Virus record (IMG/VR): IMGVR_UViG_3300046535_002148
Span: 62,001-126,000 of that record
From: a virus
Strand: one strand, 5' to 3'
Length of the DNA stretch: 64,000 bases
Below are positions 43,483 through 43,612 of this stretch, in pieces; positions within the stretch are counted from its first letter, which is position 1; the number at the start of each line of letters is the position of its first letter. The position numbers were made by a program, and so were the translations under genes. The notes under the pieces are model-generated. The model ran no database searches. It had not been told where the DNA came from and saw only the letters and a program-made list of their open reading frames with translations.

Positions 43483-43612
43483 CCGTGGTCGGTGCGAACG
43501 GTCGGGATACTTCTGTTACTGGTTCGAGTCCGGTCTCGGGAGCCACTCCCGAGAAGCTCAATTGGCTGAGCAAGGTTCACGCCTGACCGGATCTGATGGT
43601 TCTCGACCACGG
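43483..43612 (+). ncRNA. Y-RNA-like permuted tRNA element 1
   Basis: The outer stem is CCGTGGTCG (43,483-43,491) with CGACCACGG (43,604-43,612), 9 perfect pairs. Motif GGTGCGAA follows at 43,491. A second helix is CGGTCGGG/CCTGACCG, and ATACTTC follows at 43,507. Inside lies a permuted tRNA: T-arm 43,518-43,534 with loop TTCGAGT, 3' acceptor strand CTCGGGA, then GCCA, one base, 5' acceptor strand TCCCGAG (7 perfect pairs), then AA and a D-arm with GCTC/GAGC stem. The anticodon arm position is taken by the long stem. This is the layout of tRNA-mimicking bacterial Y RNAs. Inference: it binds the Ro protein encoded downstream. Confidence 0.82.

What the first reader, a model, noticed from the sequence alone, without database searches (positions are those of the whole stretch)
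43518..43571. Circularly permuted tRNA module in element 1 with GCCA
The order is T-arm, 3' acceptor strand CTCGGGA, GCCA, C, 5' acceptor strand TCCCGAG, D-arm. All acceptor pairs are perfect and the D-arm is canonical. A discriminator plus CCA placed precisely after the 3' acceptor strand is expected for a real tRNA 3' end. RNase P and tRNA 3' processing enzymes could open the loop and yield a chargeable CCA end on an RNA whose anticodon arm is replaced by the Y stem.
Basis: partly seen in the sequence, partly recalled or inferred. Interest (0 to 1): 0.9.

Follow-up and report, generated by a model that had tools for sequence, protein, structure and literature searches.

The report
Phage Y RNA with permuted tRNA module
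The feature is real, but it is an ordinary member of a known family, the bacterial Y RNAs that partner the Ro60 protein and carry a shuffled tRNA-like domain; the 'CCA end' that made it look special is a hairpin loop that its relatives do not share.

Summary
At 43518-43571 lie a T arm, CTCGGGA, GCCA, C, TCCCGAG and a D arm, an arrangement found 0 times in 100 shuffles. The thing is a known kind: a YrlA-type bacterial Y RNA (43482-43613), one of three in tandem upstream of an AAA ATPase gene, with two more just before a phage Ro60 (TROVE) gene at 45968-47560. Rfam YrlA hits it at 42.3 bits, below its cut-off of 69, but Ro60-linked actinobacterial Y RNAs score only 32-45. Models built from Ro60-linked relatives, without window sequence, find it at E 2e-14 and 2e-8. 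The special claim, a processed chargeable CCA end, is not supported. NCCA stands in that register in 9 of 95 relatives' loops, 6.4 expected from local composition (P 0.19). Loops run from 3 to 17 nt and include stable tetraloops. In element 1 the 'discriminator' G pairs with the following C, leaving an 8-9 bp hairpin with a CCA triloop. Element 1 has no anticodon arm and no G3:U70. Most likely role: the Y stem binds the phage Ro60 and the closed tRNA-like head engages an effector or tRNA enzymes. New member of a known kind.

The parts
43482..43613 (+). Element 1: YrlA-type Y RNA (the finding). Outer stem GCCGTGGTCG/CGACCACGGC 43482-43491 with 43604-43613; inner stem GGTCGGG/CCTGACC 43500-43506 with 43582-43588
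   Evidence: Inverted repeat 100% complementary; fold -66.3 kcal/mol, z -3.75; Rfam YrlA 42.3 bits; R1 52.8 bits; R2 30.4 bits
43490..43513 (+). Conserved Y-RNA motifs CGGTGCGAAC and GATACTTC of element 1 (near-invariant CGGTGCG.AG and TACTTC in relatives; here AC instead of AG)
   Evidence: Alignment A2 invariant columns; motif pair 5 times on + strand, 0.04 per shuffled window
43518..43534 (+). T arm of element 1
   Evidence: Sequence; R1 alignment
43535..43553 (+). Acceptor hairpin CTCGGGA-GCCAC-TCCCGAG; as folded 8-9 bp with a CCA triloop
43554..43572 (+). D arm of element 1
   Evidence: Sequence; R1 alignment
43615..43781 (+). Element 2: second tandem Y RNA; acceptor hairpin CCGCTCC-ACTCGT-GGGGCGG, D arm degenerate
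   Evidence: 25-nt inverted repeat; fold z -3.87; R2 29.3 bits, R1 22.3 bits
43800..43945 (+). Element 3: third tandem Y RNA, with an anticodon-like arm (loop CTTGCAT); ARAGORN calls part of it tRNA-Ala(TGC) 43802-43873
   Evidence: R2 63.2 bits; R1 32.9 bits; ARAGORN; fold z only -0.24
45655..45775 (+). Fourth Y RNA: Y motifs and stems, T arm, but no acceptor or D arm
   Evidence: Motif; R2 17.4 bits; fold z -2.06
45776..45940 (+). Fifth Y RNA, directly before the Ro60 gene; loop ACCTGGTCT
   Evidence: R1 65.4 bits, R2 78.3 bits, Rfam YrlA 43.2 bits; fold z -3.41
45968..47560 (+). Phage Ro60-like (TROVE + vWA) protein, 530 aa, MIDAS-like motif DTSASM
   Evidence: PF05731 E 9.7e-14; PHROG RNA-binding protein E 2.8e-46; PDB TROVE proteins 9l5y/9kop E 2.9e-22 and Ro60 1yvp; up to 64% identity to actinobacterial Ro60
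43960..45477 (+). AAA ATPase gene between the three-Y-RNA array and the second Y-RNA pair
   Evidence: PF00004 E 5.9e-14

Best explanation
Element 1 is a phage-encoded YrlA-type Y RNA. The two ends of the RNA pair into a Y stem that most likely binds the phage's own Ro60. The far end folds into a tRNA-like head made of T arm, closed acceptor hairpin and D arm in permuted order. The head probably works as a whole, closed structure: it tethers Ro60 to an effector (host PNPase in the Deinococcus precedent) and/or is recognised by tRNA-binding enzymes. The GCCA letters are most likely a chance loop sequence closed by a G-C pair. Shown here: anatomy, homology and linkage to Ro60. Inferred: Ro60 binding, the effector and the function.
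For: Y-stem pairing and folding z -3.75. Rfam YrlA match over model positions 1-114, 42.3 bits. Custom structure model R1 from relatives only: 52.8 bits, E 1.9e-14. Sequence-only model R2 from relatives only: 30.4 bits, E 2.4e-8. Five copies of the Y motif pair on one strand against 0.04 per shuffle. TROVE gene 2.4 kb downstream with two further Y RNAs directly before it. 131 motif-defined Y RNAs with a T loop in Ro60 loci: the acceptor hairpin is 7/7 paired in 79 against 3 in shuffled controls, though sequences and loops differ. Published YrlA anatomy: 5'/3' stem for Rsr, head like D, T and acceptor arms, modified by DusA and TruB (PMC8394870).
Against: Element 1 falls below the Rfam gathering score (42.3 against 69), though so do Ro60-adjacent Y RNAs of actinobacteria and phages (32-45 bits). 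It has AC where relatives have invariant AG in the Ro60-side motif, and its 3' motif is TTCTCG rather than ATCTCGG. No expression or binding data. Sub-threshold RF02553 matches also appear in 11 of 14 control genomes, so a weak Rfam match alone proves little.
Confidence: 0.93

Rival explanations
1. One reading: RNase P cuts before 43547 and a 3' nuclease leaves GCCA at 43545, giving a two-piece tRNA-like RNA held together by the Y stem, with a chargeable 3' end.
For: GCCA stands exactly where N73-CCA would. A permuted archaeal tRNA gene with encoded CCA and a 1-nt spacer is reported (PMC3978253). Bacterial RNase P RNA cleaves odd substrates when a GCCAC trailer is present (PMC12710915). Two other modules in this window also carry NCCA (CCCA and TCCA at 52.7-52.9 kb), 3 of 6.
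Against: NCCA is not enriched in the family (9 of 95, expected 6.4, P 0.19). Position 73 shows no A bias. Many loops are triloops or stable tetraloops. Best fold has a 3-nt loop. No anticodon arm, no G3:U70. In Salmonella the YrlA RNA gave no fragments under conditions that cleave tRNAs (PMC7790460).
Confidence: 0.03
2. Same RNA, different job: a decoy or repair partner. The tRNA-like head competes for anticodon nucleases or tRNA-processing enzymes turned against the phage.
For: Proposed for YrlA as competitive inhibitor of a tRNA nuclease (PMC7790460); TROVE proteins in phages linked to RNA repair with a tRNA-like partner (PMC7824862). Many actinobacterial and phage Y RNAs carry an anticodon-like arm (72 of 183 variable regions, 2.6 in shuffles).
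Against: Element 1 has no anticodon arm. No RNA ligase (PF09414) or RtcB found in this virus record, though the record may be incomplete.
Confidence: 0.25
3. Two decayed tandem tRNA genes: 3' half of one followed by 5' half of the next.
For: Tandem tRNAs with short spacers give the same letter order; most pattern hits in viral contigs look like that.
Against: Acceptor strands 7/7 complementary; flanks form the Y stem instead of tRNA halves; lax ARAGORN finds no tRNA pair with shared acceptors; homologous to Ro60-linked Y RNAs.
Confidence: 0.02
4. Permuted (two-piece) tmRNA or a fragment of one.
For: Permuted tmRNA has the same order of T arm, 3' acceptor, loop, 5' acceptor, D arm (own knowledge). 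Rfam tmRNA gives a sub-threshold 21.4 bits on element 3.
Against: Below cut-off 47 with about 300 model positions missing, and on element 3 only; no G3:U70 in element 1.
Confidence: 0.01

Closest known systems
YrlA / bacterial Y RNA (Rfam RF02553; Salmonella YrlA, PDB 6CU1)
   Same: Y stem from the two RNA ends, T arm - closed acceptor hairpin - D arm, linkage to a Ro60/Rsr gene
   Different: Sequence diverged (42.3 bits, below cut-off); in a phage; part of a three-element tandem array; loop reads GCCAC
Y RNAs next to Ro60 in Actinobacteria and actinophages (Nonomuraea, Actinomadura, Streptomyces; phages BRock, GiJojo, Satis, Atuin)
   Same: Same motifs (CGGTGCG.AG, TACTTC, TCTCGG, strongest in the bacterial loci) and same permuted module, mostly just upstream of Ro60
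   Different: Many of those carry an anticodon-like arm between TACTTC and the T arm; element 1 does not
Circularly permuted tRNA genes (Cyanidioschyzon, Thermofilum pendens)
   Same: 3' half before 5' half; encoded CCA and a 1-nt spacer are reported in T. pendens
   Different: Those are real tRNAs with an anticodon arm and a bulge-helix-bulge junction; element 1 has a Y stem and no anticodon
Permuted two-piece tmRNA
   Same: Order of the tRNA-like parts
   Different: No tmRNA match on element 1, no G3:U70, Y stem instead

Membership tests
Bacterial Y RNA, YrlA type | 5' and 3' ends pair into a long stem | tested here: met
   10-bp perfect outer stem and 7-bp inner stem
Bacterial Y RNA, YrlA type | tRNA-like head: T arm, acceptor hairpin, D arm | tested here: met
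   (R1 52.8 bits)
Bacterial Y RNA, YrlA type | Encoded near a Ro60/Rsr (TROVE) gene | tested here: met
   TROVE gene 45968-47560, same strand, with two more Y RNAs directly before it
Bacterial Y RNA, YrlA type | Conserved Ro60-side motif of the stem | tested here: inconclusive
   CGGTGCG and TACTTC present; AC instead of invariant AG; 3' motif TTCTCG
Bacterial Y RNA, YrlA type | Rfam RF02553 gathering score (a curated detection threshold, not a biological feature) | tested here: not met
   42.3 against 69 bits; Ro60-adjacent relatives also miss it at 32-45 bits
Bacterial Y RNA, YrlA type | RNA is bound by Ro60 | not testable with these tools
   Needs biochemistry
Circularly permuted tRNA gene | Complete cloverleaf with anticodon arm | tested here: not met
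   Only ATACTTCTGTT lies between the inner stem and the T arm
Circularly permuted tRNA gene | Discriminator + CCA, conserved in relatives | tested here: not met
   GCCA present here but NCCA not enriched in relatives
Circularly permuted tRNA gene | Mature ends formed by RNase P and 3' processing | not testable with these tools
   Needs RNA-seq or in vitro cleavage
tmRNA | Rfam tmRNA cut-off and G3:U70 | tested here: not met
   No tmRNA hit on element 1 even at E 1; 21.4 bits on element 3; position 3:70 is C:G
tmRNA | Tag reading frame | not tested
   Not searched for separately

The most novel reading that the evidence does not exclude
In this phage some permuted modules (GCCA in element 1, CCCA and TCCA at 52.7-52.9 kb) are cut open by tRNA enzymes, giving two-piece, Y-stem-joined tRNA-like RNAs with usable CCA ends, comparable to two-piece tmRNA.
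Probability: 0.03. Interest if true: 0.8.

Novelty: new member of a known kind. Interest (0 to 1): 0.25.

Why it matters
It places the finding in a known RNA family and removes the most exciting claim. The by-products are of some use: a phage with five Y RNAs beside its own Ro60, a set of roughly 100-160 non-redundant permuted modules in Ro60 loci of actinobacteria and their phages that Rfam's YrlA model misses at its cut-off where tested, and evidence that many keep an anticodon-like arm. It also warns that tRNA finders and phage annotators call these RNAs tRNAs.

Tried and rejected
blastn of the array against phages: no match. Two pattern scans used a spacing one base short; their results, including the zero, are not evidence. 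A first count of NCCA against bulk loop composition looked enriched (13 of 149, 3.4 expected); this vanished with position-specific composition and tighter redundancy removal, and in several cases the outer loop bases next to the CCA can pair. The 100% pairing is by selection of 7/7 hairpins; the unselected test is. RNA repair genes RtcB and RNA_ligase: none in this record. The primary papers on YrlA (Chen 2014; Wang 2018; Sim and Wolin 2018) are not held; their content is taken from reviews or from my own knowledge.

Full report
What was checked. Scanning the window for T arm, then a 7-bp acceptor hairpin, then a D arm finds three perfect cases and none in 100 shuffles, so the order is not chance. 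The flanks matter more than the module: GCCGTGGTCG (43482-43491) pairs perfectly with CGACCACGGC (43604-43613), and GGTCGGG pairs with CCTGACC inside it. The whole RNA folds better than all 200 shuffles (z -3.75).

What it is. Rfam's YrlA family (bacterial Y RNA) matches element 1 over its full model at 42.3 bits, below the curated cut-off of 69. That shortfall is typical: Y RNAs directly upstream of Ro60 genes in Actinomadura, Planobispora and Streptomyces phages score 32-45 bits. The gene at 45968-47560 is a TROVE/Ro60 protein, up to 64% identical to actinobacterial Ro60 proteins. I collected Ro60 loci from phages and actinobacteria and found 215 distinct permuted modules in them, window copies included. 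A sequence-only model made from 35 relatives (none from this window) finds six places in the window at E below 0.001: all five Y RNAs at 45789 (78 bits), 43805 (63), 43486 (30.4, E 2.4e-8), 43636 (29) and 45659 (17), and the odd module at 52868 (20.8). A structure model of the module alone gives element 1 52.8 bits, E 1.9e-14. In 131 Y RNAs chosen by sequence motifs and a T loop, the acceptor hairpin is 7/7 paired in 79, against 3 with the downstream bases shuffled. The module is therefore a conserved part of these Y RNAs. The virus carries five Y RNAs in two groups around an AAA ATPase gene.

The GCCA. If the loop were a tRNA 3' end, relatives should show it. They do not. NCCA in that register is found in 9 of 95 non-redundant loops of four or more bases; the position-specific base composition predicts 6.4 (P 0.19). 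Loops run from 3 to 17 nt; 30 of 102 are 3-4 nt, 12 of them UNCG/YNCG/GNRA tetraloops. Position 73 has no A bias. In element 1 the supposed discriminator pairs with the following C and the best fold has a three-base CCA loop. Only 3 of 7 ARAGORN-called tRNA genes of this virus encode CCA. Element 1 has no anticodon arm and its 3:70 pair is C:G, so the known acceptor-only charging by AlaRS is not expected (established knowledge). Against this, a permuted tRNA gene of Thermofilum pendens is reported with encoded CCA and a 1-nt spacer (PMC3978253), and RNase P RNA can cut unusual substrates given a GCCAC trailer (PMC12710915). Processing is thus possible but unsupported.

How it most likely works. 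By analogy with Deinococcus and Salmonella (PMC8394870; PMC7790460), the Y stem binds Ro60 and the tRNA-like head binds PNPase or another effector, and may be modified by tRNA enzymes. A decoy or RNA-repair role in phage-host conflict is a fair rival. None of these steps is shown here.

Judgement. A real feature, correctly read by eye, belonging to a known kind. The added claim about a chargeable end is not supported.

Noticed in passing
Window 52727-52795 and 52876-52935: Two further permuted modules with perfect 7-bp acceptor hairpins and loops CCCAACTCAT and TCCACGT, but without the GGTGCG/TACTTC motifs and without a convincing overall fold. Rfam tRNA reads 52765-52900 as a 136-nt tRNA at 30.4 bits; YrlA matches 52853-52961 at 23.4 bits. 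Diverged Y RNAs or a rearranged tRNA array.
   Followed up: partly
Ro60 loci of actinobacteria and phages (L003, L036, L037, L122 and others); element 3 at 43800-43945: Many Y RNAs have a 5-bp, 7-nt-loop anticodon-like arm with U33 between TACTTC and the T arm (72 of 183 distinct regions, 2.6 in shuffles), so the whole cloverleaf is present with the break between D arm and anticodon arm. The Rfam YrlA model shows no such arm. I could not check whether this is already published.
   Followed up: partly
L026 5769-5843, L029 5774-5847, L032 5704-5775, L034 5745-5835; window 43802-43873: Phage records annotate Y RNAs upstream of the Ro-like gene as tRNA-Arg, tRNA-Ser and tRNA-Pro; ARAGORN calls element 3 tRNA-Ala. 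These look like misannotations.
   Followed up: partly
Loops of 95 non-redundant modules: The second loop base after the 3' acceptor strand (tRNA position 74) is C in 59 of 95, a bias with no explanation yet.
   Followed up: no
L030 (Arthrobacter phage Atuin) 7900-8330; L016 1350-2300; L020 6430-6970: Other phages also carry arrays of two to three Y RNA-like modules near Ro60, some downstream of the gene and unannotated.
   Followed up: no
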